Part shown: piece by piece, positions 13,417-25,848 of the stretch
How positions within the stretch are numbered: position 1 is the stretch's first letter
How the letters are laid out: every line of letters begins with the position of its first letter
Notes under the pieces: model-generated
What the model was told of the DNA's origin: nothing
Database searches by the model: none
Seen by the model: only the letters and a program-made list of their open reading frames with translations
NCBI GenBank assembly: GCA_003388505.1
Contig: QQVO01000046.1
Coordinates: forward strand, 1-64,000
Origin: Planctomycetota bacterium
GTDB taxonomy: Bacteria > Planctomycetota > Planctomycetia > Planctomycetales > Planctomycetaceae
Reading direction: 5' to 3'
DNA length: 64,000 nucleotides
Translations under genes and position numbers: made by a program

Positions 13417-16400
13417 CTACAGAATCCGGAATTCGTCGAGCGATTCCGCGCTCCGGAGATCCGGGGCCGCGCCCGACCGGAGGGCCCGGTTGAGCCATGC
13501 GGCCGAAGGCTTGCGATACGGGCGGAACTTCTCGCTGGTTCCGGTCTCTTCCCGGTAGAGCAGGGCCCGATGCACGCCCAATTTCGAGGCGGCCGGGTTG
13601 TCGATGAGGTTGCTCGAATCGGAGGCGTTCATCTGGAAGGCGACGCGCAGTTCCAGTTCCCGCATGGTCTGCCGGGAGAACCAGCGGTCGACGTTGTTGT
13701 AGGAGTCGCTCCAGATGATGGTATGCAGCCCGACGGAGGGGCCTTCCGCCAACAGGTCGGCGAACAGTTGACCTGGTGTCGCCGGCTTGTCATCCGTTCC
13801 GCCTCCGAATGAGCCGAGGCCGAAGTCGTCATCGGCTTTCCGCAGATCCCGGAAGCGGCCCAGGTTCGAGATCAACAGGAACCACGTCGCAGCCGGCGCG
13901 TCGAGATCGGCCGTGCGCCGTTCACGTTCGGCCGCGAATTCCCTGAGAACCTCGCCCGCATGTGCCGGCGGAACCACGAGCAGGCCTCCCCCCAGGTGAG
14001 AGGAAATTTCCGGCCAGTCGTTGCTCGCAGGAGAGTCACCGTGCCCTCCGTCCAGAATGACGATCCGACCCGCCCCATCCGGGATGCCGTTTCTTGCTGA
14101 TCCGATGAGGCCGAGTTGCGCACAAAGCGACACCGCCGCGGTCGTCAGGATGCCGTGCGCCGCGTCGGCATCCTGGCCGACGATCAGCAAGTTGGCGCCG
14201 GACTGTTTCGAGAATGTGGCCGCCGTGGGCTCTCCGATCTCCACGGCATCGCCGAGCCAGACTTTCGGCGCACGCTTCGTCTCGGGTTGGAATTCCGCCG
14301 TTGCGGACAACCGCAGCAGTCGCGTCAACTCGGAGTTCTGCGCCGGATCGGAAGGGACGTTGCCCTCGAAGACGATTGCGGCCGGATCCTGACGCTCCCG
14401 TTTGTCTGCGAGTTCCGCGATTCTCCTGAGCCAGACGTCGCGTTCCTCGTCGGGAAGCCATGCCACCTGAAACGGGTGATTTCCTTCCAGCAGCCCGTTG
14501 GCGTCGTTGTAGATCGCTTCTCCGGGCCTTGTGAGCAGGCGGGCGGCCGTGTTCTCCTCACTCAGGATCAGGTGCGCGTCCGATTCACTGCACTGCAAAG
14601 CCACGCGGACGGCGACCTGTCCGAGCGTGCTGCGGGCGAGCGAATAGGCGCCGCCCAAGGTTTGCGAACCGAGCACCACGTGAACTCCAAATGCACGACC
14701 CTGGCGAACAAGCCGGTCCAGGAGGAGGGACGCCGTCTGGCTCAATTTGTCGTCTTCGACAAAGAACTCCTGGAACTCGTCGATGACGAGCAGGATGCGG
14801 GGCATCGGTGTTTCGGGACGCGCGTCGCGGAACCCGGCGAGGTCCTGCACGCCGTGTTTGCGGAACAATTCGCCCCGTTCCTGGAGGAGCGCGTCCAGTC
14901 GCTGCAGGGCGCTGACGCCGAATTCGCGGTCGCTCTCGATGGCGATCACGTCGGCATGCGGCATTTGTGACGCGGCGTAGGCCTTGAACTCCACGCCCTT
15001 TTTGAAGTCGATGAGGTAGAAGCGGACTTCATCGGGGCTGTAGTGCAGCGCAAGATTCGTGACGAGACAGTGCAGGAAGGTCGACTTGCCCGATCCGGTT
15101 TTGCCGGCGATCAGCATGTGCTGGCTGGTTCCGCGGCCGAGCCGCAGCGACTGCAGTTTGGTCGCTCCGGCGCGGCCGAGCGGAACCTGCAGCCCGTCGC
15201 GGCTGGATGTCTGCCAGAGTTGATCTTCGGCGGGAGCGACGCGACCAAACGAGACTTCCACCCGCCGGGCGTCCTTCGATGCCTCGCCGACGCGTTTCAC
15301 GATCTCGGTAAAGAGTGCGGGGGGAGGGGGATCATCAACGTCGAGAGGCCAGTCGGCGAGCGGTCCGCTGCTCGGAAAGAAGCTGCCATCCCGCCACACC
15401 AAGGTCGGCAGATGTTCTTCGAGCGTGGCGAGCTTGAAGCCGTGCGGCTGGTCGAGCGTGGCGTCCATGCTCATCAGCGTGTACACGCCGCACCGGGGGC
15501 CGCTGGTTACGATGCTGGTGAGACGCCGGGCGGCGATTTCGCTGAACTTGGCGGGGAAGTCGGTCACGACGAGGATGCGGTAGGGTTCCGCAACCTCGCC
15601 GGCGAATTCGTTGTACTCTTCGATGGTCGAGAACTCGTTGCGGAGGTACTTCTGAAGCACTTGCTCCATGTGCTCCGTCAGCGCAGCCAGTTGTTCTTCG
15701 ATCTGTCCCGGCTCGGTCCAGATCCGCTTCGAGACGAGCAACTCGTCGTAGTCCGTCAGATGCATAAAGCCCGCGAAGCTCTCGCCGAGTCCGACCGGAT
15801 CGAGAAACGTGAACCGGAGTTTGCCGGGCGGAATCAGCGTCAGCATCCGCAGCAGGGCCGATTGCAGCAACTTGACGGCGGCCTCCCGTGCTTCACCGCC
15901 GCGGGTCTTCAGCAAGAGGGAGGGAGACTCGGGGAACGGGGCGACCGCCGGCAGGGAATGGCTGGTCGTGCGCGGAGCAAGCCGGATTTCGTCGGGGACG
16001 GCGTGTTCCCATTCTGTCAGCGAAATGGGAAATGAGCCGATTCGAACTCCCGCCGGGATCTCGACCGGGGCGTCCCAACCTGGGCGGGCGATCTGTTCCC
16101 ATTCCGGGAATTGCTCGCGAGCGGTGGTTTGCGCGGCCGCCGAGGCTTTGTCGAACTCGGCCAGGGCGGCTTCCCAGTCCCGTTTGAGTGAGTGAGCCAA
16201 TTCGGATCGTTCCCGCAGGCGCTGCTGACGGCGGTCTTCCAGGGCGGCTGTGAGACGCTGGTTTTCCGCCTCGAAGGCTTCGACGGCCTGAGTCCGCCGG
16301 GCGGCGGCGTGTTCTTCGATCTCGCTGGTCGCCCGTTCGCGGTTTTCCTTCAGTTCGTGCTGTACTTCGGCATAACGTGCGTTTTCTGCAGCGAGTTCTC

Positions 16401-17553
16401 GGGTCCGCCCCTGTTCGATCTCCTTACGACGCGCCTCGTGCGCCTGCTGATAACGGTCCAGGGCGGACTGACGCTGCGACTCGAACTCCGCCTGCTTTTT
16501 GCGAAAGGCGGCCTGTTGATGCTCGATCTCCCGGGCGGCAATCGCCGACCATCGCTGGTGCAGCCAGCCCGCCGTCGAAACGTTCTCCTGAAGCTGACGC
16601 AGCGCCTCGGACTGCTGGATGCTACTGACCATATACACGACGGCCAGCATGACGAGACTGACTCCGGCCGCCGCGCCTGCGGCCGCCGCAATCCAGATCG
16701 GGTCAAACCGTCCTGCGGCATCGATCCATGCCGGCTGGGCGAACAGAAAGATCGGCGCGAAACATGCCGCCATGAGAATCGTGAACAGGATCAGCGGACG
16801 GTAGCCGACAAACAGGCGTGGCGTCTTCAGCCTGCGAACAGACTCGAGGTTTTCGCGTGCGGCCTGTGTGTGCTGGGAGAAGAGTTGTTGGGCCTGCTCG
16901 CTGTTGCGCGGCTGGTAGTCGGGTTCAACGAGCGGGGACTCGCGCCACCGCCGTTCGTCGGCGAGGGCCTGATAGGCCGATTGGAGGCTGTTCCACTCGA
17001 CGGACTGTTGTTCTTCCGTCCGCTCTCGCGACAGTCGAAACCGCTCGAATTGCCGCTTGGGACTGTCTTCGGATTCGTCGTCGAGCACCGAGGAGGCGAC
17101 CCAGGCGCTGTCTTCGTACTTCGCCTGAAGCTCATCCGCCTGCGTGTTGTATCGATTCTCGATTTCACGGACGGTTTGCAGGTGAGCCTGCCGGGCGCGG
17201 TTCTCGTTTTCGTCGAGGTCGGCGTGGAGGGCGGCGGCGGCCTGCTGGTGCGCGGCCTCGTGTTCGGACAGCCAGTCGGCATGCGCCCGATGGAGGAAAC
17301 GGAGCGCGCGTTCGAGTTCCTGCTCCTGCTCGTCGGCGCCCTGCGACGTGAGGGCCTCCAGCCGCTGTTCGGCGTTGACGCGCCTGTCGATGGCCTGCTG
17401 CAGGCGGGCGAGCAGTTCGGCGTACCGGCCGCCGAATTCGCGTGTTGCAGATCGCCGGCCGTTGCCAGGCGTCGACGATCTGGCGGCGACGTGCAGCGCG
17501 CCGTTGAGCATTTCATCGACCGGATTCCCGGCGCTTTCCAGTCGGCTGGTCAT
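13417..17553 (-). CDS. FtsK/EssC-like membrane ATPase of a WXG100 locus
   Basis: A 1378-aa protein. Residues about 40-240 are predicted coiled coil, two membrane helices follow (about 253-272 and 286-309), then another long Glu/Arg/Gln-rich coiled coil (about 320-500). The first FtsK/SpoIIIE ATPase domain has Walker A GKTGSGKST at 817-825 and Walker B ILLVIDEF at about 919-927. A second P-loop domain near 1126 has lost its Lys/Thr (VGQDADAAHG) and is probably inactive, as in the accessory domains of EssC/EccC. This points to a motor for WXG100 export. The start overlaps the preceding stop by 4 bp. A DNA pump is less likely given the neighbours. Confidence 0.88.
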   Translation of the reverse strand: MTSRLESAGNPVDEMLNGALHVAARSSTPGNGRRSATREFGGRYAELLARLQQAIDRRVNAEQRLEALTSQGADEQEQELERALRFLHRAHADWLSEHEAAHQQAAAALHADLDENENRARQAHLQTVREIENRYNTQADELQAKYEDSAWVASSVLDDESEDSPKRQFERFRLSRERTEEQQSVEWNSLQSAYQALADERRWRESPLVEPDYQPRNSEQAQQLFSQHTQAARENLESVRRLKTPRLFVGYRPLILFTILMAACFAPIFLFAQPAWIDAAGRFDPIWIAAAAGAAAGVSLVMLAVVYMVSSIQQSEALRQLQENVSTAGWLHQRWSAIAAREIEHQQAAFRKKQAEFESQRQSALDRYQQAHEARRKEIEQGRTRELAAENARYAEVQHELKENRERATSEIEEHAAARRTQAVEAFEAENQRLTAALEDRRQQRLRERSELAHSLKRDWEAALAEFDKASAAAQTTAREQFPEWEQIARPGWDAPVEIPAGVRIGSFPISLTEWEHAVPDEIRLAPRTTSHSLPAVAPFPESPSLLLKTRGGEAREAAVKLLQSALLRMLTLIPPGKLRFTFLDPVGLGESFAGFMHLTDYDELLVSKRIWTEPGQIEEQLAALTEHMEQVLQKYLRNEFSTIEEYNEFAGEVAEPYRILVVTDFPAKFSEIAARRLTSIVTSGPRCGVYTLMSMDATLDQPHGFKLATLEEHLPTLVWRDGSFFPSSGPLADWPLDVDDPPPPALFTEIVKRVGEASKDARRVEVSFGRVAPAEDQLWQTSSRDGLQVPLGRAGATKLQSLRLGRGTSQHMLIAGKTGSGKSTFLHCLVTNLALHYSPDEVRFYLIDFKKGVEFKAYAASQMPHADVIAIESDREFGVSALQRLDALLQERGELFRKHGVQDLAGFRDARPETPMPRILLVIDEFQEFFVEDDKLSQTASLLLDRLVRQGRAFGVHVVLGSQTLGGAYSLARSTLGQVAVRVALQCSESDAHLILSEENTAARLLTRPGEAIYNDANGLLEGNHPFQVAWLPDEERDVWLRRIAELADKRERQDPAAIVFEGNVPSDPAQNSELTRLLRLSATAEFQPETKRAPKVWLGDAVEIGEPTAATFSKQSGANLLIVGQDADAAHGILTTAAVSLCAQLGLIGSARNGIPDGAGRIVILDGGHGDSPASNDWPEISSHLGGGLLVVPPAHAGEVLREFAAERERRTADLDAPAATWFLLISNLGRFRDLRKADDDFGLGSFGGGTDDKPATPGQLFADLLAEGPSVGLHTIIWSDSYNNVDRWFSRQTMRELELRVAFQMNASDSSNLIDNPAASKLGVHRALLYREETGTSEKFRPYRKPSAAWLNRALRSGAAPDLRSAESLDEFRIL

Positions 17554-17777
17554 CGTTCCTCCAACTCGCGCTGCGCGGACTGCAACAGTTGCGACAGGTG
17601 CGAGATCGCCGGGATCGCGGCGGACGCCTCCTCGACGATGATGCGCATGTGCTCTTCTTCGAATGCGCGACTGTTCGCGTCGTCCCATTCGTCGGCCGTC
17701 GACGCCCAGACGACCTGGAGTTGTTCCAGCGCCTCCTGCAAACGTCCCTTGGCGGCTTGAAGATTACCGACGTTCAT
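17550..17777 (-). CDS. WXG-like small protein (75 aa)
   Basis: A 75-aa all-helical protein. The turn EWDDANSRAFEEEH (Trp31) aligns with TWRDQENKKFSEEF of the WXG100 protein two genes upstream, so it is probably a second, diverged WXG100-fold protein. Two helices flank this turn. No signal peptide or membrane segment. It is translationally coupled to the ATPase gene (ATGA overlap), so it may be a substrate or adaptor of that ATPase. Confidence 0.78.
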   Translation of the reverse strand: MNVGNLQAAKGRLQEALEQLQVVWASTADEWDDANSRAFEEEHMRIIVEEASAAIPAISHLSQLLQSAQRELEER

Positions 17778-17835
17778 GTTTCGTGCTCACGATGGGTTTT
17801 CCGAGCAATCATCGAACCGCGGCGAAGGTGAGGGC

Positions 17836-18381
17836 TCAGCTCTCGACCTCGTCTTCCCCCCCGCTTTCTGCGGTGGGCTGCTGATTGAGTTCCGCGGGCG
17901 ACGACGTGCCGGCGTAGGCTTCCAGGGCGAGGAGTTGCTTTTCCAGAATCGCGCAAATGCGAGGAATGTCTCCTTCGAGCATCCGTTGCGGGCCGCCCAA
18001 CCGGCCTCGAAACTCGTCCAGTTCGTGATGGATCTTGGCCGCCCAGCGTTTCACATTGTGGACCTGCGACTCACAGTGTTCGAGACGAAGCTTGGCTTTC
18101 TTGTAGTTCTGTTTCTCTTCGATGCATGAGGGCCGCCGGCCGACGACGGACCGCATCTGGCAGGTCTGCAGTGCGGATCGGGCCTCCGCCACCTGATCGA
18201 ACGCGCGCCGGATCTGTGATTGCCAGTAGGCGGGCCGGTCGTGTTCAATCCACTGGACGACGCGCTGGACTTCCGTCGCGAGCGCGTCGAGACACGACTT
18301 GCCTTCATGTTGGAACTTGATCAGGGCGGCCCGCAGGTCGCGGACGGCGTCGATCGAATGGACGTTTGCGGAATACGCCAT
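17836..18381 (-). CDS. Coiled-coil protein of the WXG100 locus
   Basis: A 181-aa protein, mostly amphipathic helix, with repeated Gln/Arg/Glu heptads (VRDLRAALIKFQHEGKSC, then FDQVAEARSALQTCQM, then KLRLEHCESQVHNVKRWAAK) and a disordered acidic tail ending EDEVES. The N-terminal helix resembles the beginning of LXG-type substrates, but no toxin domain follows. It may be a chaperone, structural part or substrate of the system. It lies 54-58 bp from the genes on each side in one transcription unit. Confidence 0.72.
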   Translation of the reverse strand: MAYSANVHSIDAVRDLRAALIKFQHEGKSCLDALATEVQRVVQWIEHDRPAYWQSQIRRAFDQVAEARSALQTCQMRSVVGRRPSCIEEKQNYKKAKLRLEHCESQVHNVKRWAAKIHHELDEFRGRLGGPQRMLEGDIPRICAILEKQLLALEAYAGTSSPAELNQQPTAESGGEDEVES

Positions 18382-18435
18382 AGCCGTTCGAACTTTCTCT
18401 GCCTAATCGCATTCGGCGCACGACCGGGGGACGTC

Positions 18436-18708
18436 TCACCGCTGTTGCAGGTATTCGTCGATTCGCTCGGCCTTGCGGAGCAGGTAAGGAATGTGCTGGT
18501 TGTTTGCTTCGACAAACTGGGCGAGGAGGCGGAGATGTTCGCGGAACTCCTCGCTGAACTTCTTGTTCTCCTGGTCTCGCCAGGTCGTGCTCAACGTGTC
18601 GACCTGGTTGGCCAGCATGCCGGCCTGGTCCGAGAGCATCGTATTGAACTGCTTGAGCTTCTGCGCGAAGGAACGCAGTTCTTCAGGATTGACGATCGCT
18701 TGAGCCAT
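18436..18708 (-). CDS. WXG100-family protein (ESAT-6-like)
   Basis: A 90-aa helical hairpin protein of normal WXG100 size when started at the ATG giving MAQAIVNPEEL. The turn reads TTWRDQENKKF, with Trp43 in place but Arg-Asp in place of x-Gly. Helices flank it on both sides. A C-terminal YxxxD/E export signal is not evident. In Gram-positive bacteria such proteins are secreted as dimers by the EssC/EccC motor; a motor of that type is encoded three genes downstream. The longer upstream reading frame has no family resemblance and is rejected. Confidence 0.87.
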   Translation of the reverse strand: MAQAIVNPEELRSFAQKLKQFNTMLSDQAGMLANQVDTLSTTWRDQENKKFSEEFREHLRLLAQFVEANNQHIPYLLRKAERIDEYLQQR

Positions 18709-19049: not shown

Positions 19050-20222
19050 TCAGCCGGCGGCAGCAACCAGATTCTGATGCGCTTCCGCGACGGCGCCGGG
19101 AAGCTGGTCAAGGCATTCGGCGGGAGTGTCTCCCCGCGTAAAGAGCGTGCAGATCGGGTTGCCGATCGAGAAACGTTGTCCGGCGGGCGGGATGTCGGCG
19201 ATGGAAAGCGCGCGGCTCCAGGATGTGCTGTCCGGCTGCAACTCGGGTGGCAGCCAACTCTCGGGAGACGGCGCCTGAAAAGACCGATCGCTGTAGAGCA
19301 CAAACTTACCCAGCGCGTGGGGAGGCGTCTGTATGCACGGGCGCGGCATGGGGACGTCCAATCCGAAGGCCGCACAATGATCGCTCAGGAGATTGACCTC
19401 GAGCACCTGTTCAAGCACTTCCGCCGAGGCGGGATAGCGGGGATTGACTTCCGTCAGACGTGGGACGTCATCCGCGTCGAGAATAAAGTCGCAGCCGAAC
19501 AGTCCGCACAACCCGAACTTCCACGACAGGACGTTTCCAATCCGGCGAATGAGATGTTCGGCCTCGACGGAGAGAGTGACCGGACCGACCGAACCGCACC
19601 AGGCAAATGATGGAGCGTGCAACAGCGGATCGCCGATCAACTGCCGCGTGACGCCGACGAACCGGACGTTTCCGCGACCGCTCGGGCCGACGAACACAGC
19701 GGAATAGGACTCGCCATCGGCCCGCTGCTGGAAGAAATACGGCTCGTCCAGCGGCTTGCTGTCGGGCTGCCACACGGAAATATCCCGTCCGCCGGCGGAA
19801 CGAATCGGCTTGATCATCCAGCGTCCATCCTGAGGCGGTGGGTCGGTCGCCGGTCGGACTTTGAGGAGAGGCAATCCTAATTCTGCGAACCCCTTGGCGA
19901 GTTGCACCGGGTCTCGCACGACCTCGACGATGTTCGCCGGATTGCCGATCAAGGGGCCGCGCTGTTCCAGCAGCCGCAGCAGATCGGGGGAATTCTCCAG
20001 GGGGCCTGTGTAGAGGCAGGGAAGTTGCGGGACGGCGCCCAGCGCGTCGGCGATTCCCGACGGGAAATTCTGAACCTTGATGGATTGCACCGGCGGCTGC
20101 AGGTCGGCATCGGCGTAACGGTCGAGACACACCGGCCGGAATCCTGCGCGGAGGGCAGAGAACACCGCCGATCGGCAACTGGCGCCGATGATGAGCAATG
20201 ACGCGTTGATGAGAGAGACCAA
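19050..20222 (-). CDS. ATP-grasp enzyme next to H4MPT genes
   Basis: An ATP-grasp ligase of about 390 aa. The N-terminal segment SLLIIGASCRSAVFSALRAG is a pre-ATP-grasp fold. The ATP-grasp core has MIKPIRSAGGRDI (nucleotide-binding Lys), FFQQRADGESYSAVFVG, and the metal-binding end LFGCDFILDADDVPRLTEVNPRYP. Proteins of this type (COG2232-like) accompany bacterial tetrahydromethanopterin genes and may act in making that cofactor; here fae is divergently adjacent. The start is uncertain: the frame is open to 20357, but that leaves 20 bp before fae, so the TTG at 20222, just before the conserved region, is preferred. Confidence 0.8.
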   Translation of the reverse strand: MVSLINASLLIIGASCRSAVFSALRAGFRPVCLDRYADADLQPPVQSIKVQNFPSGIADALGAVPQLPCLYTGPLENSPDLLRLLEQRGPLIGNPANIVEVVRDPVQLAKGFAELGLPLLKVRPATDPPPQDGRWMIKPIRSAGGRDISVWQPDSKPLDEPYFFQQRADGESYSAVFVGPSGRGNVRFVGVTRQLIGDPLLHAPSFAWCGSVGPVTLSVEAEHLIRRIGNVLSWKFGLCGLFGCDFILDADDVPRLTEVNPRYPASAEVLEQVLEVNLLSDHCAAFGLDVPMPRPCIQTPPHALGKFVLYSDRSFQAPSPESWLPPELQPDSTSWSRALSIADIPPAGQRFSIGNPICTLFTRGDTPAECLDQLPGAVAEAHQNLVAAAG

Positions 20223-20376
20223 CCAGATCCAGAAAAGCCTGTCGCCGCCGACTTCGTGAACGCCGCAGTCGGTGGATTTCGTGAGAATGACGTGGTATGA
20301 CTTGTGCCGTGAAACCGGTCCGGTAACGGCAAACTTCAGATCATAACCGCTCGGCACATGTGAAGGGAGAGAAAAG

Positions 20377-20874
20377 ATGTCGTTTCATGTTGGAGAAGCA
20401 CTGGTCGGCGAAGGCAATGAGGTGGCTCACATCGATCTGATGATCGGTGACAAAGGCGGACCGGTGGGCGTCGCATTCGCGAATGCACTCGCCACGCAGT
20501 CGAAGGGGCACAGCAGTCTGCTGGCGGTGCTGGAGCCGAATCTTGCGACGAAACCGTCGACTGTGATGATCACGAAGGTCACGATTAAGGGCGCCAAGCA
20601 GGCCGTGCAGATGTTCGGTCCGGCACAGCACGCTGTGGCGAAAGCGGTCGCCGATTGTGTCGCGGCGGGCACGATTCCGAAGGACCAGGCCGAAAACCTG
20701 TGCATCGTCTGCGGCGTGTTCATTCACTGGGATGCCGACGACGACAAGAAGATCTTTGAATACAACTACGAAGCGACCAAGCTCTCCATCGAGCGCGCCA
20801 TGAAGAACGAGCCGACCGCCGACGAAATGGTCAGCAAGAAGGACTCGGCGAAGCATCCGTTCTCCGGCGTTTAG
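20377..20874 (+). CDS. fae: Formaldehyde-activating enzyme
   Basis: A 165-aa enzyme that condenses formaldehyde with tetrahydromethanopterin to methylene-H4MPT. The sequence is full length and highly conserved: [19 protein letters not shown] near the N-terminus carries the catalytic His (residue 18 counting Met), followed by [19 protein letters not shown] and [20 protein letters not shown] Shine-Dalgarno site lies nine bases before the ATG. The next gene on this strand uses its product. In planctomycetes this pathway is thought to detoxify or oxidise C1 compounds and not to support methylotrophy. Confidence 0.97.
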
Positions 20875-20947
20875 AGCACTTTACAGAACTGTGGTTGTGC
20901 TGAGGGGGCAGGTTGGCTGGGGTTCGTCATCTCCGGCGAAGCGGCGG

Positions 20948-21035
20948 GTCGAGAGGCGAGGGTCAAGGGGCAAGGGACACAAATCGCTGACGCGTCGTTG
21001 GTCAGGTCTCTGGACTCTTGACTCTCAGCCCTCAG
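20948..21035. repeat. GTCGAG-type repeat pair outside the tRNA array
   Basis: GTCGAGAGGCGAGGGTCAAG (20948-20967) faces CTGGACTCTTGACTCTCAG (21010-21028). It has the same unit and inverted layout as at 7185 and 9404, showing that the family is not confined to tRNA spacers. Confidence 0.55.
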
Positions 21036-21145
21036 CTCATTCGCGATCTTGCATCCGCGAATCAATAACGGATCGCTCCCGGGACCACAGACCGAATCGT
21101 AAAGCACTCCAGTCGCCGCTCTCCGACGACCCGAAAACGCGGCAG

Positions 21146-21170
21146 CCCCCGGCTCACAGGCCGGGGGTTT
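21146..21170 (+). terminator. Terminator-like hairpin before mtdB
   Basis: CCCCCGGC (21146-21153) pairs with GCCGGGGG (21160-21167), followed by TTT. It could terminate the fae transcript, or attenuate read-through into mtdB, whose start is 26 bp away. Confidence 0.6.
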
Positions 21171-21195
21171 CGCCATTTGAGTGCCGGAACGATCG

Positions 21196-22053
21196 ATGAA
21201 GACCATCCTGATTCAACTCGACACCGACGCGCAGCCGAGCACCTTCGATCGCGTGGTGGCCGTCGACGCGGGAACCGATCATCTCTTCAGCTACGGGGGC
21301 GTCACACCGGACAACCTGACGCCGCTGGTCCACGGCGCGATCTTCACACGCGGTCCGCAGGATCTCTCGCAGACCGCGATCTTCATCGGCGGCAGCGACG
21401 TCGCTGCTGGGGAGAAACTCCTGGAGAACGTGCAATCCACATTCTTCGGACCGATGCGGGTGTCGGTGATGATGGATTCCAACGGTTGCAACACGACGGC
21501 GGCCGCCGCTGTGCTCGCTGCGGCGCGGCACGTCTCTCTCTCCGGCGCGCGGGCGCTCGTGCTGGGAGGCACCGGGCCGGTGGGTCAGCGCGCGGGCCTG
21601 TTGCTGGCCCGGCAGGGGGCGTGTGTGAGCATCGCCTCGCGGTCGGCCGATCGCGCGGAAGCCGTTTGTGAACGTCTCCGTGAACAGTGCGCGGGCGCGG
21701 AGATCACGGCGTGCGAGTCGGCCGGGGACTCGCTGGCGAGTGAACTCTCTCAGGCCGACATCCTGATTTCGGCCGGCGCGGCGGGCGTTCAGTTTCTTTC
21801 GACGGACCAGTGGCAATCCGCCGGATCGCTGAAGGTGGCGGTCGATTTGAATGCCGTGCCTCCCGTCGGCCTGGAGGGCATAGAAGTCACCGAAAAGGCG
21901 AAGCAGCACGGAGACGTCGTCTGTTACGGAGCCGTCGGCGTCGGCGGGACCAAGATGAAAGTGCACAAGGCCGCCGTCCAGCGTCTCTTCGAAGCCAACG
22001 ATCGCGTCCTCAACACCGCAGAAATCTACTCGCTGGCGGAAGAGATCGGTTGA
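21196..22053 (+). CDS. mtdB: NAD(P)-dependent methylene-H4MPT dehydrogenase
   Basis: A 285-aa enzyme oxidising methylene-tetrahydromethanopterin, the step after Fae. The substrate-binding part contains SNGCNTTAAAAVLAAARH, and the Rossmann fold follows (ALVLGGTGPVGQRAGLLLAR, then SRSADRAE). The ATG at 21196 has GGAAC eight bases upstream and gives the usual N-terminus; an in-frame GTG at 21181 is possible. MtdB and MtdC cannot be told apart reliably by eye, so the symbol names the family. The 3' end overlaps the convergent kinase gene by 28 bp. Confidence 0.9.
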   Translation: MKTILIQLDTDAQPSTFDRVVAVDAGTDHLFSYGGVTPDNLTPLVHGAIFTRGPQDLSQTAIFIGGSDVAAGEKLLENVQSTFFGPMRVSVMMDSNGCNTTAAAAVLAAARHVSLSGARALVLGGTGPVGQRAGLLLARQGACVSIASRSADRAEAVCERLREQCAGAEITACESAGDSLASELSQADILISAGAAGVQFLSTDQWQSAGSLKVAVDLNAVPPVGLEGIEVTEKAKQHGDVVCYGAVGVGGTKMKVHKAAVQRLFEANDRVLNTAEIYSLAEEIG

Positions 22054-23765
22054 GCAGTGATTCGGCGGCTGTCCTCGGCCCGGAGTCGCTGCCGGTGAAA
22101 CTTCCAACCGGGAATGAGAAACGTTCCTGCGGCGACGATCCCGAACAGGACGAGGCTGTAATCCCAGCCCTCGTGTTGCAGCCATGCCATGGGGATGCTC
22201 GTGAGGTACAGCACGGCCGCATGCACGTAGAATTCGCCCGACAGGATTCCGGCTTTTGCGACAAAGACGGAGGCTGCGATGACAGCCAGCACTGGTGAGA
22301 GCGAGAGCACCGGCAAATCGAGCGTGGCTTCGACCGCAAAGAGCGTTGTCGACGATGCGATGCTGGCCGCCCAGACATGAGCGATCTGCCGCTCGACGAA
22401 GGTCACCGGTCCGGCCCGCCGGCGCAGGTTCCAGAAAATTACACCCCACGTGCTGAGTCCCGCCGTCCAGAGCCCGACGTACGGCCAACGGGAGTCGATC
22501 GCCATCAACTGCATCCCGTTTGTGGTCAGGCAGAGAATCAGCAGCACCACGGCATGCCACATCCAGAGCAGACCCCAGTTCTGCAACACGCTGACGTAAT
22601 GCGTCGGACGAAAGGCGCGGCTGATCACCTGAAACAGATGCGACGACCGCGCGCTGATCGGTTCGTTGCGCAGATACGCTTGCAGATCGTCCGCGAGACT
22701 GTCTGCCGACGCGTAGCGCAAGTCCGAGGGCTTCTGCAATGCTTTCATCGCGATCAGTTCGAGATCGGGATCGGCCTTCGGGTTGATCAGCCGCGGCGGC
22801 GGCGGGTCCTGCTCGAGGACCAGCAGAACTGTGTCGATTGGCGAAGCGGCGTGAAACGGCGCGCGGCCTGTGAGCATGGCGTACAGAATCGCGCCGAGGC
22901 TGAAGATGTCGGTCGCCGGGCTGACAGTCCCCCGTTGTCCCGCCGCCTGCTCGGGAGCAATGTAGCCGGGAGTGCCGAGGATCGCGCCGCTGCGGGTAAT
23001 GTCAGTGACCGTCGGCGCGTTCGCCTGGTCTCTTTCATTCGCGCTGGGAAGGTGTTTGGCGAGTCCAAAATCCGTCACGAGGGGACGATTGTTGTTGTCG
23101 AGCAGAATGTTGGACGGTTTCAGGTCGCGGTGCAGGATGCCGGCCCGGTGTGCGGCGGCGATCGCCCGACAGACCGGAATCAGGAGTTCCGCCGCCTCTC
23201 GCGCCGGCACAGGGCCTTGAGCAATCCGGTCGGCGAGCGTCGAACCTTCCACAAACTGCATACTGAAGAAGGGCTGGTCCTGGTATCGGCCCACCTCGTA
23301 GACCGAAACGATATGTGGGTGCTCAAGCCGGGCGGCCGCCAGTGCCTCCTTCGAGAAGCGCTCAATGTCGTCCGTCGAGGCGAATTCGCCGCGAAGAATC
23401 ATCTTCAGCGCCACAACTCGATTCAGCGGAAGATGACGCGCCTTGTAGACAATGCCCATCCCGCCCCGACCGAGTTCCGAGAGCAGCTCATAGTCGCCCA
23501 GCCTGCGAGGGAGGGGACCGCCCGATGAACCCGGTGAAATCGTCCCGCCGCTTTCCGAATCCAGCCCGTTCGCGGAGTCTTCGAGTTGCGCAGCGCCCGC
23601 GAGGTCTTCGAAAACGTCGGCAGTCGTCCAGAGCGCCCGGAGTTCGTCGGCAAGTTCCGGATGCCGGCGGGCGACCGATTCGACGTCCGGCTGCGCGCCC
23701 GACCGGACGGACTGCAGCAACTCGTCCAGCAGATGTGCCAGCAATTCATCGGAATCGGTCTGCAT
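22026..23765 (-). CDS. Membrane serine/threonine protein kinase
   Basis: A 579-aa Hanks-type kinase. Residues 1-85 are a helical region common in planctomycete kinases (ELLAHLLDELLQSVRSG). The kinase domain has the Gly loop GRGGMGIVYKARH, the ATP-binding Lys in VALKMIL, the catalytic loop HRDLKPSNILLD, DFGLAK and GTPGYIAPEQ. About six hydrophobic helices follow from residue 385 on, with no extracellular sensor domain, so the signal may be perceived within the membrane. The ATG giving MQTDSDELL is chosen; the longer upstream frame lacks family resemblance. Confidence 0.92.
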   Translation of the reverse strand: MQTDSDELLAHLLDELLQSVRSGAQPDVESVARRHPELADELRALWTTADVFEDLAGAAQLEDSANGLDSESGGTISPGSSGGPLPRRLGDYELLSELGRGGMGIVYKARHLPLNRVVALKMILRGEFASTDDIERFSKEALAAARLEHPHIVSVYEVGRYQDQPFFSMQFVEGSTLADRIAQGPVPAREAAELLIPVCRAIAAAHRAGILHRDLKPSNILLDNNNRPLVTDFGLAKHLPSANERDQANAPTVTDITRSGAILGTPGYIAPEQAAGQRGTVSPATDIFSLGAILYAMLTGRAPFHAASPIDTVLLVLEQDPPPPRLINPKADPDLELIAMKALQKPSDLRYASADSLADDLQAYLRNEPISARSSHLFQVISRAFRPTHYVSVLQNWGLLWMWHAVVLLILCLTTNGMQLMAIDSRWPYVGLWTAGLSTWGVIFWNLRRRAGPVTFVERQIAHVWAASIASSTTLFAVEATLDLPVLSLSPVLAVIAASVFVAKAGILSGEFYVHAAVLYLTSIPMAWLQHEGWDYSLVLFGIVAAGTFLIPGWKFHRQRLRAEDSRRITAQPISSASE

Positions 23766-24192
23766 TGTCGAGAGGTTTCGGGTGGACGGGCTGTTGGCCC
23801 GGAGGGCATCGCGACGGTCGTCGCCCGATTGCCATTGAGATCGTTGCACGTTGTTTTGACGTTTGCCAGCAGGGGCCGCACGCGGCCCGCGAGATTTCGG
23901 GGGCGCCCGTGCTGTGTTGCTGCCCCGCGCGGTGCGCACTTGTGCAGCGGTTCCCGCGGGGGGAATCCCGAGTGACGCTGGTTGATGGTCGCAACATACC
24001 GTTGTATCATGGGTTAGGTGAGGCGATTTACAGAGTTTCCTCACCGCTTTTTTGTCGAACACTCGGCGATCAGATGCGGTAAGATTGTAGAGGCGTGTCC
24101 CTGTGCGGTGCTGCACAGGGGAACCTTCTCTCTTAACTCCTGTCTCTTCAACAGGATAAGACGACTTCGAGCGAGGTGTGTGGGGTGAATCC
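23766..24192. promoter_or_regulatory. Divergent region, hairpin leader of the DUF1549 gene
   Basis: 427 bp without a gene. In the presumed leader of the DUF1549 gene a perfect 8-bp stem CCCTGTGC/GCACAGGG (24099-24120) is followed by a weaker CCTGT/ACAGG stem (24137-24156). No T-run follows either. Promoters for the divergent kinase and DUF1549 genes must lie here. Confidence 0.45.
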
Positions 24193-25848
24193 ATGACGAT
24201 GACGCGCGATCGACAATGCCTGACATTCGGAATGACGGCGGCGATTCTCGCGATTTCCGTGGCGTCCGGCCAAGCGGCCGACGACCGGTTCTCGACCGGA
24301 TCTTCCGATCCACTGATTGAATACATCGACGGTCAGATTCGCACGGGCTGGGTCGACAATGAGATCGAACCGAGTGCGGTGGCGGACGACTCAGAATGGC
24401 TGAGGCGGGTCTACCTGGACCTGGTCGGCCACATCCCGGACGTCGAGACGATCACGGCGTTTCTGGAGGACAAGGATCCTGCCAAGCGGTCGAAGATGGT
24501 CGATCGGTTGCTCGACGACCCCGATTACGTCCGCAACATGACCACGGTCTGGGCCAATCTGCTTCTGGGGCGCAACACGCCGGACCGAACCAGTCGGCCC
24601 GGAATGGAGAAGTTTCTGCGCGAGAGCTTCGCCCGCAACCGGCCGTGGAATGAAATCGTTTTCGATCTCCTCACGGCGGAAGGTCACTACGAAGAGAACG
24701 GGGCCGTCAACTTCCTGTTGGGTCAACTGGACGGCAACCCGAACCGGGAAGACTACACCGTTGAGGCGACCGCCCGCGCCACGAGACTGCTGCTCGGCAT
24801 GCAGGTGCAGTGCACGCAGTGTCACAATCATCCGTTCAACGACTGGCAACAGGCGCAGTTCTGGGAGTTCGACAGCTTCTTCAAGCAGATCGTCCGCAAC
24901 GACGTCGATCGCTACGATCCGGAGTCGGGACGGATGGTCGACGATTACTCCGAACTGGTCTGGCGCGATTTTGAAGGGCCTGTGTTCTACGAGACGCGGG
25001 CCGCCGAGATGAAAGTCTCCTATCCGGCCTATTTCGGCACCGAGGTCGCGTTCGACAGCGGGACCAACCGGCGGCTTGAGTTCGCCCGGCTGGTGTGCCG
25101 GGAAGATCCGAACAACCAGTTGGCCAGGGCGTTCGTCAACCGGATGTGGGGTCACTTCTTCGGGTACGGGTTCACCCGGCCTGTCGACGACATGGGACCG
25201 CACAACGCGCCGAGTCATCCGGAATTGCTCGACCGCCTGGCGGAAGAGTTCACCGAGAGCGGCTACGACATCAAGCAGTTGGCCCGCTGGATCTGCAATA
25301 CCGAGGCCTACAACCTGACGAGCCGTTTCAACGCCAACAATGAGATCGACAAGCCGTCGGCCGGCGAAGTGCCGCTGTTCAGCCACATGTACGTCAAGAC
25401 GCTGACAGCCGAACAACTCTACGACTCGTTGATTATCGCGACCGGCGCGCACCAGGCGGGTCAGTCCGGTTACGAACAGGCTCAGGAGCAGCGTGAACGC
25501 TGGCTGCAGGAATTTCTCCGCATCTTCGGGGGCAACGATGAGGACGAGCCGACGCTCTTCAGCGGTTCGATTCCTCAAGCCCTGATGATGATGAACGGCG
25601 AACTGGTCCAGAAAGCGGTCAGCGCCGAAAAGGGCAGCTACCTGAACACCATCCTGACGAACAAGCAGCTCAGGAGTGACAACGCCCGGCTGCAGCAGAT
25701 TTACCTTGCCGCCCTGGGACGGATTCCCACCCGGTCCGAAATCGGCCCGCTCAGCCAGTTCGTGCGCAGGCATCCGGACAAGCTGGCGGCCTACCAGGAC
25801 ATCTACTGGGCGCTGCTGAACTCCAACGAATTCGTCGTCAACCACTAG
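24193..25848 (+). CDS. DUF1549/DUF1553 protein with CxxCH motif
   Basis: A 551-aa exported protein with a signal peptide (AAILAISVASGQA). The DUF1549 domain (about 35-235) shows DDSEWLRRVYLDLVGHIPD and MQVQCTQCHNHPF, whose CTQCH is a potential heme c or metal site. The DUF1553 domain (about 290-530) contains FVNRMWGHFFGYGFTRPVDD, a family signature, then NAPSHPELL. These proteins are abundant in planctomycetes and usually paired with DUF1501, which follows 89 bp downstream; the biochemical role is not established. A paralogous domain pair occurs in the fusion protein starting at 27987. Confidence 0.92.
   Translation: MTMTRDRQCLTFGMTAAILAISVASGQAADDRFSTGSSDPLIEYIDGQIRTGWVDNEIEPSAVADDSEWLRRVYLDLVGHIPDVETITAFLEDKDPAKRSKMVDRLLDDPDYVRNMTTVWANLLLGRNTPDRTSRPGMEKFLRESFARNRPWNEIVFDLLTAEGHYEENGAVNFLLGQLDGNPNREDYTVEATARATRLLLGMQVQCTQCHNHPFNDWQQAQFWEFDSFFKQIVRNDVDRYDPESGRMVDDYSELVWRDFEGPVFYETRAAEMKVSYPAYFGTEVAFDSGTNRRLEFARLVCREDPNNQLARAFVNRMWGHFFGYGFTRPVDDMGPHNAPSHPELLDRLAEEFTESGYDIKQLARWICNTEAYNLTSRFNANNEIDKPSAGEVPLFSHMYVKTLTAEQLYDSLIIATGAHQAGQSGYEQAQEQRERWLQEFLRIFGGNDEDEPTLFSGSIPQALMMMNGELVQKAVSAEKGSYLNTILTNKQLRSDNARLQQIYLAALGRIPTRSEIGPLSQFVRRHPDKLAAYQDIYWALLNSNEFVVNH

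What the first reader, a model, noticed from the sequence alone, without database searches (positions are those of the whole stretch)
13417..18708. Minimal type VII-like secretion locus in a planctomycete
A WXG100 protein, a coiled-coil protein, a second WXG-like protein and a membrane-anchored FtsK/EssC-type ATPase form one tightly packed unit. The usual partners (EccB/D/E or EssA/B, FHA and YukD) are absent. One ATPase domain is intact and one is degenerate, as in EssC. Type VII systems are known for Gram-positive bacteria, so a four-gene version in a planctomycete, with two membranes to cross, raises the question of what it exports.
Basis: partly seen in the sequence, partly recalled or inferred. 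Interest (0 to 1): 0.75.

Follow-up and report, generated by a model that had tools for sequence, protein, structure and literature searches.

The report
Membrane-anchored mini type VII-like machine
Four adjacent genes in this planctomycete appear to make a small membrane-bound protein pump related to the type VII secretion systems of Gram-positive bacteria; the kind has been briefly noted before, but this version sits in the membrane, shows no toxin, and its four parts are kept together in a genome even when their genes have drifted apart.

Summary
Four minus-strand genes (18708-13417) encode a 90-aa WXG100-family hairpin (WRD, not WXG), a 181-aa coiled-coil hairpin, a 75-aa WxD hairpin, and a 1378-aa ATPase with a transmembrane hairpin and three FtsK/EssC-like domains, only the middle one intact. 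Of 294 sampled genomes of the phylum (90% or more complete), 54 have the ATPase. The 90-aa hairpin is in 53 of those 54 and none of the other 240; the coiled coil and small hairpin are in 54 of 54. In 17 of 54 the genes are split (14 clearly); 16 of the 17 still have all four. This looks like one obligate machine. It is not wholly new: a 2012 table footnote (PMC3482391) names planctomycetes among lineages with solo WXG domains and a three-domain ATPase active only in the middle, 'mobile versions of T7SS'. The nearest ATPases found outside the phylum, on plasmids, lack a clear membrane segment; the tree does not decide between T7SS and FtsK ancestry. Differences here: membrane anchor, no toxin domain found, no EssB, no WXG-fused effector over cut-off. 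Most likely function: export of the hairpin complex across the inner membrane (about 50%). Cargo and outer-membrane step are unknown.

The parts
18436..18708 (-). WxD hairpin 1 (90 aa), WXG100 superfamily, WRD motif, conserved C-terminal tail RKAERI(D/E)EYLQQR
   Evidence: PF06013 35.1 bits; 36-row family with invariant W43, D45, F51, K79, A80, Y86; profile's best PDB hit is H. pylori HP0062, E 1.9e-11, then EsxB entries
17836..18381 (-). Coiled-coil hairpin protein (181 aa) with a low-confidence tail after residue 159; no toxin domain found
   Evidence: Structure prediction, two helices of about 70 residues, mean pLDDT 89.7; no family over a cut-off in Pfam, none listed in NCBIfam or PADLOC; 54 of 54 ATPase-positive genomes, one match each
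17550..17777 (-). WxD hairpin 2 (75 aa)
   Evidence: Below the Pfam cut-off (18.5 bits); family profile hits S. aureus EsxA; invariant W31 and D33 in 46 rows; 54 of 54 genomes
13417..17553 (-). Membrane-anchored three-domain FtsK/EssC-like ATPase (1378 aa); start overlaps the preceding stop by 4 bp
   Evidence: FtsK_SpoIIIE 115.7 bits; NCBIfam EccCa 110.2, EccCb 104.5, EssC 91.9, FtsK 23.1 bits, all below the equivalog cut-offs; model of residues 491-1378 matches EccC 4nh0 along its length, with differing domain placement (TM 0.38)
16636..16794 (-). Transmembrane hairpin of the ATPase (about residues 254-306)
   Evidence: Kyte-Doolittle 19-residue means 2.59 and 2.29; two segments over 1.5 in 75 of 80 assessed rows
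14659..15105 (-). Motifs of the intact middle ATPase domain: Walker A GKTGSGKST (817-825), Walker B ILLVIDEF (920-927), RQGRAFGxHxxxGSQT block (950-965)
   Evidence: Column counts across 80 relatives

Best explanation
The four genes encode one inner-membrane machine. A hexamer-forming (inferred) EssC/FtsK-like ATPase, anchored by a transmembrane hairpin and with one working ATPase domain between two dead ones, works with two small WxD helical hairpins and one long coiled-coil hairpin. By analogy with type VII systems, the small hairpins pair with each other and/or with the long hairpin (like Lap-LXG or PE-PPE partners), dock on the dead C-terminal ATPase domain through the conserved tail of hairpin 1, and the complex is pushed across the inner membrane. 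Shown: gene content, family- and fold-level homology, conserved active site, predicted membrane segments, obligate co-occurrence, no EssB match in this genome, no WXG-fused effector over the Pfam cut-off in 54 genomes. Inferred: hexamer, pairing, docking, export itself, and that the hairpins are the cargo. How anything crosses the outer membrane is unknown.
For: Co-occurrence in 294 sampled genomes: ATPase in 54 at E<=1e-30; hairpin 1 in 53 of those and 0 of 240 others; coiled coil in 54 of 54 plus 2 weak partial matches elsewhere; hairpin 2 in 54 of 54 (the other 240 not searched). Genes split in 17 of 54, 6 of these within one contig; in G078 all four lie apart on one 6.8-Mb contig. Structural match to EccC along the modelled length (Foldseek E 2e-30; VIA Z 22.8, 704 residues). 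Two transmembrane segments in 75 of 80 rows. In a Helicobacter plasmid relative a WHH/colicin-DNase-type nuclease gene with a SUKH immunity gene lies between the hairpin and the ATPase, as expected of a secretion system. A Caballeronia locus has a long protein between hairpin and ATPase, in the place of the coiled-coil-nuclease fusion described for such loci (PMC11090510).
Against: T7SS export signal YxxxD/E: 0 of 52, 1 of 57 and 3 of 55. No toxin domain found on the coiled coil: none of 48 members scanned matches a toxin family (3 members hit Exonuc_VII_L weakly, best E 0.0036, and the longest-tailed members were not among the 48); of the long ones, L072 and L081 carry an Imm33-like domain only and L035 was not scanned. 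The nearest ATPases found outside the phylum have no clear transmembrane segment, and three of the five sit near stress or defence-type genes, so the ancestral job may not be secretion. The ATPase does not group with EccC/EssC. The EccC structural match is loose: TM-score 0.38, rmsd 14.8, and single-domain FtsK matches rank first by VIA (Z 23.9, against 23.1 and 22.8 for EccC). One planctomycete ATPase, L082, shows no transmembrane segment.
Confidence: 0.5

Rival explanations
1. A membrane-tethered nucleic-acid motor used in defence or stress response: the WxD hairpins and coiled coil are adaptors for a FtsK-type pump that acts on DNA or RNA, as may be the case for its CoCoNuT/TerY-P cousins.
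For: Closest ATPases found outside the phylum (37-44% identical) are plasmid-borne; three of five lie near TerD genes (L088), VWA/kinase/phosphatase/CARF genes (L087) or Hsp70/GrpE genes (L089). The best tree puts the clade on the FtsK/Dnd side, weakly (88/48). PADLOC SspH scores 88.6 and mad8 79.5 bits. Patchy distribution, 54 of 294.
Against: No gene other than the four is conserved beside the planctomycete ATPase in more than 12 of 82 loci, shadow frames apart. The NCBIfam FtsK model scores only 23 bits against 110 for EccCa. The hairpins are WXG100-superfamily proteins. ATPase distances follow FtsK distances (Mantel r 0.59, 6 of 5000 permutations, n=10), not as expected of a mobile defence cassette.
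Confidence: 0.27
2. A housekeeping envelope machine: the complex acts at the inner membrane (for example in division or envelope remodelling) without exporting a separate effector.
For: Genes are kept when dispersed (17 of 54); no toxin domain found; inheritance like FtsK.
Against: Absent from most sampled genomes of the phylum, including 16 of 32 of its own family, so it is not essential housekeeping.
Confidence: 0.15
3. A true type VII secretion system with undiscovered remote membrane partners encoded elsewhere.
For: An EccC/EssC ATPase and a WXG100 protein are the common components of T7SSa and T7SSb, and the authors report them for the new subtypes too, though no WXG100 gene was identified for T7SSi (PMC11217815, abstract and passages).
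Against: EssB profile absent from this genome; the EccB search had no working control; ATPase not in the EccC/EssC clade; only one intact ATPase domain; no FHA domain in the Pfam scan.
Confidence: 0.08

Closest known systems
Solo WXG with YueA-like three-domain ATPase, 'mobile versions of T7SS' (Zhang et al. 2012, PMC3482391, table footnote; passage seen)
   Same: Planctomycetes are named; three FtsK/HerA domains with only the middle one active; solo WXG domains
   Different: There called mobile; here no conserved neighbours, ATPase mostly single-copy (two in G056 and G297), distances like those of FtsK. The passage seen does not mention the coiled coil, the second hairpin, a membrane anchor or obligate co-occurrence
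[quoted passage not shown] passages seen), represented here by a Caballeronia sp. SBC2 plasmid (L087; assignment is mine, from the annotated neighbours)
   Same: Three-domain ATPase active only in the centre, N-terminal coiled coil, two WXG100-fold proteins, a coiled-coil partner; ATPase domain 43.6% identical
   Different: Those ATPases lack transmembrane domains, the coiled coil is fused to a D-ExK nuclease domain, and they sit among VWA, kinase and phosphatase genes; none of this was found here
H. pylori HP0062 / HP0066 (PMC3397514, PMC4978471; passages seen)
   Same: HP0062 is the best PDB match to hairpin 1 (E 1.9e-11) and also has a WRD motif; clustered with an FtsK/SpoIIIE-domain gene
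   Different: An HNH/ENDO VII nuclease is in the H. pylori cluster. HP0066 itself was not compared; a Helicobacter plasmid ATPase was (36.8%)
Type VII secretion systems T7SSa-T7SSj (EccC/EssC)
   Same: WXG100-fold small protein plus membrane-bound FtsK-like ATPase; structural match to T. curvata EccC along the modelled length
   Different: Different ATPase clade, one intact ATPase domain, no FHA, no EssB match, hardly any YxxxD/E, W-x-D instead of W-x-G

Membership tests
WXG100 superfamily | Small helical hairpin matching PF06013 | tested here: met
   Hairpin 1: 35.1 bits against cut-off 27.3, 36 of 36 at E<=0.01. Hairpin 2 only 18.5 bits; its homology rests on profiles. Fold not modelled for either
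WXG100 superfamily | W-x-G motif in the turn | tested here: not met
   W-x-G in 0 of 52 and 0 of 57; W-x-D in all. HP0062 has WRD too
Type VII secretion system | WXG100 protein encoded with an FtsK/SpoIIIE ATPase | tested here: met
   co-occurrence
Type VII secretion system | ATPase is an EccC/EssC orthologue (same clade, over the equivalog cut-off) | tested here: inconclusive
   110 bits against a cut-off of 509 (EccCa), 92 against 778 (EssC); separate clade 99/94; union with EccC/EssC D1 not rejected, p-AU 0.268
Type VII secretion system | Membrane anchor in the ATPase | tested here: met
   Two segments over 1.5 in 75 of 80 assessed rows; 4 of the other 5 have one, L082 has none. Hydropathy only
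Type VII secretion system | EssB (T7SSb) | tested here: not met
   PF10140 absent from the window's genome; three control genomes ring, one over the cut-off, B. subtilis among the three
Type VII secretion system | EccB (T7SSa) | tested here: inconclusive
   PF05108 absent, but no control genome rang
Type VII secretion system | YukD/EsaB, EccD, EccE, EssA | not tested
   Not searched genome-wide; the four-gene unit has no further gene
Type VII secretion system | YxxxD/E export motif on substrates | tested here: not met
   0 of 52, 1 of 57, 3 of 55; found in only 3 of 6 mycobacterial control proteins, so a weak test
Type VII secretion system | Export of the WXG100 protein | not testable with these tools
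   Needs a mutant and fractionation
Solo-WXG / three-domain ATPase 'mobile T7SS' (Zhang 2012) | Three FtsK/HerA domains, only the middle one active | tested here: met
Solo-WXG / three-domain ATPase 'mobile T7SS' (Zhang 2012) | WXG protein without fused toxin | tested here: met
   In 54 genomes the PF06013 matches over the cut-off lie at the hairpin 1 or hairpin 2 loci
Solo-WXG / three-domain ATPase 'mobile T7SS' (Zhang 2012) | Mobility | tested here: inconclusive
   No conserved neighbours, Mantel against FtsK r 0.59, n=10; but distribution is patchy and genes move within genomes
CoCoNuT Type III-A FtsK/EssC extension | Same ATPase clade | tested here: met
   Clade with Caballeronia, Helicobacter, two Rhodococcus and Deinococcus ATPases 99/94; that these are CoCoNuT-type is inferred for Caballeronia only
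CoCoNuT Type III-A FtsK/EssC extension | Nuclease domain on the coiled coil and TerY-P/CoCoNuT neighbours | tested here: not met
   No nuclease domain beyond weak Exonuc_VII_L hits in 3 of 48 members; no such conserved neighbours
FtsK/SpoIIIE DNA translocase | Groups with FtsK | tested here: inconclusive
   This genome's own FtsK and 11 other planctomycete FtsK rows form a separate clade (100/99); joining the two sides has 88/48 support

The most novel reading that the evidence does not exclude
A domesticated, toxin-free protein-export machine of diderm bacteria built from only four proteins: a soluble defence-type WXG/FtsK module that gained a membrane hairpin, lost its nuclease cargo, and became a fixed, largely vertically inherited translocon whose hairpin proteins are themselves the exported or surface-building units. 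It would be a candidate for the smallest type VII-like translocon.
Probability: 0.3. Interest if true: 0.75.

Novelty: new variant of a known kind. Interest (0 to 1): 0.52.

Why it matters
The WXG/FtsK modules of Gram-negative bacteria have been noted in print since at least 2012, but a 2023 review passage says they are not confirmed as secretion systems (PMC10765036), and the CoCoNuT authors suspected a different mechanism because their ATPases lack transmembrane domains. The planctomycete version has a predicted anchor, only three partners, and no conserved defence genes beside it. It is therefore a clean minimal system in which to ask whether such modules export proteins, and how a protein could cross a two-membrane envelope with so few parts.

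Tried and rejected
Classic T7SS membership was considered and not adopted: separate ATPase clade, scores far below equivalog cut-offs, no EssB match. A plain FtsK DNA translocase was rejected as a label: the genome has its own FtsK on contig C14 and the two ATPase sets form separate clades. Phages: no match to hairpin 1 in 50,697 phage records by tblastn at E<=0.1.

Orphan effectors: searched for extra coiled-coil copies (one match in each of 54 genomes) and for WXG-domain fusions; none found over the cut-off. Weak WXG hits in longer frames, such as G018 1251 aa, G246 1048 aa, G226 503 aa and G099 201 aa, are under the Pfam cut-off and were not followed. A fold search with the coiled-coil hairpin gave generic coiled coils, none with E<=0.001. 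The conserved-neighbour search in 82 loci gave only the four genes and frames lying inside or antisense to them; other clusters (kinase, DUF1501-type, oxidoreductase and similar) were in 12 or fewer loci at varying distances (cluster identities judged by eye from one member each).

Whether hairpin 1 and the coiled coil are homologous: hhalign probability 10.6, not supported. The link between the planctomycete coiled coil and the middle proteins of the plasmid loci rests on weak profile hits (E 1.6e-5 and 2.7e-5 in a small database, coiled-coil bias possible) and on position. The toxin-like C-termini of the Caballeronia and Rhodococcus middle proteins (D-ExK-like and ParB-like) are my reading by eye; Pfam found nothing in them. 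Only the Helicobacter nuclease and its SUKH partner are supported by Pfam.

L002 (own FtsK) was left out of the counts of related loci. L056 could not be assessed for transmembrane segments. A1, A2, A3 and A4 used 36 of 52, 48 of 55, 46 of 57 and 48 of 81 available sequences; A2 leaves out the longest-tailed members L035, L072 and L081. The tree used 13 of 81 planctomycete ATPases and 11 of 13 newly fetched FtsK loci plus the window genome's own. Hairpin 2 was searched in the 54 positive genomes only. In the Mantel test G297's second ATPase was not used. Of the 17 genomes with split genes, G201 and G056 have genes at contig ends, and G226 has its ATPase on a 6.6-kb contig and no hairpin 1 match; 14 are clear.
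Full report
What is there. Four genes run on the minus strand from 18708 to 13417. In order of transcription: a 90-aa helical hairpin, a 181-aa coiled-coil protein, a 75-aa hairpin, and a 1378-aa ATPase whose start overlaps the previous stop by 4 bp. The first hairpin is a WXG100-superfamily protein by Pfam (35.1 bits, cut-off 27.3). Its family profile matches H. pylori HP0062 best among solved structures (E 1.9e-11) and then EsxB entries. The 75-aa protein scores below the Pfam cut-off, but its profile matches S. aureus EsxA (E 2e-4) and hairpin 1 (hhalign probability 85). Neither has a W-x-G: the motif is W-R/Q-D in 52 of 52 and W-x-D in 57 of 57 sequences. The 181-aa protein is predicted as one long antiparallel two-helix hairpin with a low-confidence tail and resembles no named family. 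The small hairpins themselves were not modelled.

The ATPase. Residues 254-306 form a predicted transmembrane hairpin. Two segments over 1.5 on the Kyte-Doolittle scale are found in 75 of 80 assessed rows, one in 4 more, and none in L082. The C-terminal 888 residues were modelled (mean pLDDT 83.3). Foldseek places T. curvata EccC first along the whole length (E 2e-30, but TM-score 0.38 and rmsd 14.8, so the domains are placed differently), then EssC, then FtsK. VIA-align puts single-domain FtsK matches first (Z 23.9), with EccC at 23.1 (482 residues) and 22.8 (704 residues, rmsd 13.8). Of the three ATPase-like domains only the middle one has Walker motifs; its key residues are invariant in 80 relatives, and the first and third domains are degenerate.

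One machine. The survey covers 294 genomes of the window's phylum, at least 90% complete and drawn evenly from a larger group. They are unnamed; I take the phylum as Planctomycetota because 77 of the 80 related loci carry planctomycete names, 2 are titled only 'bacterium' and 1 Alphaproteobacteria. The ATPase is in 54 at E<=1e-30. Hairpin 1 is in 53, all within those 54; the exception, G226, has its ATPase on a 6.6-kb contig. The coiled coil is in 54 of those 54, plus 2 weak partial matches elsewhere. Hairpin 2 is in 54 of the 54; the other 240 were not searched. The four genes lie together in 37 of 54 and are split in 17: 6 within one contig and 11 over several contigs, of which 3 may be assembly effects. 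In G078 all four lie more than 400 kb apart on one 6.8-Mb contig. In the window's own family 16 of 32 sampled genomes have the set. Relatedness of genomes means that these counts are not independent events, but retention after dispersal is hard to explain unless the four products work together. In 10 genomes with both proteins fetched, ATPase distances follow FtsK distances (Mantel r 0.59; 6 of 5000 permutations as high), as expected from mostly vertical inheritance.

Relatives elsewhere. Outside the phylum I searched plasmid records (and phage records, hairpin 1 only) for relatives; 40 of 488 matching plasmid records were listed. The best matches to the middle ATPase domain are from Rhodococcus (44%), Caballeronia (44%), another Rhodococcus (39%), Deinococcus (37%) and Helicobacter (37%); annotated EccC/EssC in the list are about 28-32% identical. 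The Caballeronia gene sits among VWA, CARF, phosphatase, kinase and AAA genes, which I read as a TerY-P locus. One Rhodococcus gene lies beside TerD genes, the other beside Hsp70/GrpE genes; the Deinococcus gene has no such neighbours annotated. The Helicobacter unit reads hairpin, WHH/colicin-type nuclease, SUKH immunity gene, small protein, ATPase. The hairpin 1 profile finds homologues in four of these five loci (E 1.5e-24 to 2e-7). The five ATPases show no clear transmembrane segment; the one borderline stretch, in Helicobacter (1.71), lies by position in the first ATPase-like domain.

Tree. With 47 domains, the planctomycete ATPases (13 rows, 98/97) fall inside a clade with the five plasmid proteins (99/94). 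This clade is apart from EccC/EssC D1 (94/87) and from FtsK/Dnd/Dpt (100/99). Which of the two is nearer is open: 88/48 for the FtsK side, and the alternative is not rejected (p-AU 0.268). Several EccC, EssC and plasmid rows are long branches, so their places are unsure. By NCBIfam score the domain is much nearer EccCa (110 bits) than FtsK (23 bits).

What is known. A table footnote in Zhang et al. [quoted passage not shown] The CoCoNuT paper (PMC11090510, passages seen) describes the same kind of unit in Type III-A loci: centre-active ATPase with N-terminal coiled coil, two WXG100 proteins, coiled-coil-nuclease fusion, no transmembrane domains, therefore perhaps a different mechanism. PMC3397514 and PMC4978471 (passages seen) describe HP0062 (WRD) and HP0066. 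PMC10765036 (passages seen) says such Gram-negative pairs are not confirmed as secretion systems. PMC4793230 (passages seen) left the ESX system out as absent from diderm-LPS bacteria. PMC11217815 (abstract and passages) describes T7SSc-j, all in Gram-positive phyla. Passages of PMC3796261, PMC4631099 and PMC3935865 were seen and say nothing of WXG100 systems in planctomycetes. My searches for planctomycete WXG100 or type VII papers turned up the 2012 footnote; apart from it I saw no account of the planctomycete system, but most listed papers were seen as listings only. Sutcliffe 2011, Unnikrishnan 2017 and Anantharaman 2012 were seen only as citations.

Most likely working. Shown: composition, homology, one ATPase domain with intact motifs, predicted membrane segments, obligate co-occurrence, no EssB match in this genome, no toxin domain found, and no WXG-fused effector over the Pfam cut-off. 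Inferred: a membrane-anchored hexamer that binds a complex of the WxD hairpins and the long hairpin, probably through the conserved hairpin 1 tail (RKAERI-D/E-EYLQQR), and exports it. Against this: the T7SS signal YxxxD/E is nearly missing, though that motif was present in only 3 of 6 control proteins, and the unanchored cousins may act on nucleic acids. I put export at about 0.5, a nucleic-acid or defence motor at 0.27, and a non-exporting envelope role at 0.15.

Verdict. The points I did not find in the passages seen are the membrane anchor, the toxin-free coiled coil, and the co-occurrence of four genes that persists when they are dispersed.

Noticed in passing
window 19050-22053: Next to the unit lie a formaldehyde-activating enzyme gene (Fae, 256 bits), a methylene-tetrahydromethanopterin dehydrogenase gene and an ATP-grasp gene, i.e. 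a C1-transfer cluster. It did not appear as a conserved neighbour of the unit in relatives.
   Followed up: partly
L072:6569-7630, L081:1486-2517, L112, L120: In some lineages the coiled-coil protein carries a C-terminal Imm33-like domain (PF24719 in L072 and L081; L112 and L120 by a profile made from those two), an immunity-type domain without a visible toxin.
   Followed up: partly
L091:7128-11530: Helicobacter plasmid unit with WHH/colicin-DNase-type nuclease and SUKH immunity gene between the WxD hairpin and the ATPase: a candidate toxin-exporting relative.
   Followed up: partly
L089:5752-11740: Rhodococcus pseudokoreensis plasmid: Hsp70, TPR and GrpE genes directly before the FtsK-like ATPase and small proteins.
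   Followed up: no
L004, L006, L010, L019, L020, L055, L061: Planctomycete ATPases of the same family with no detectable small partner genes beside them (upstream frames read for L004, L019, L055 and L061); consistent with the dispersed arrangement.
   Followed up: partly
L080: A contig labelled Alphaproteobacteria (MAG SP218) carries the full unit; its ATPase branches within the planctomycetes, so probably mis-binned or a transfer.
   Followed up: no
G265, G150, G201 ATPase matches: Matches contain one or two in-frame TGA codons; cause not examined.
   Followed up: no
G056 contigs C138 and C126; G297 contigs C121 and C126: Two ATPase copies in one genome; G056 has a single hairpin 1 match.
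   Followed up: no
window 22026-24326: A large serine/threonine protein kinase (Pkinase 153 bits) lies a few kb upstream of the unit on the same strand; a cluster whose inspected member is a kinase occurs in 12 of 82 loci at varying distance.
   Followed up: partly
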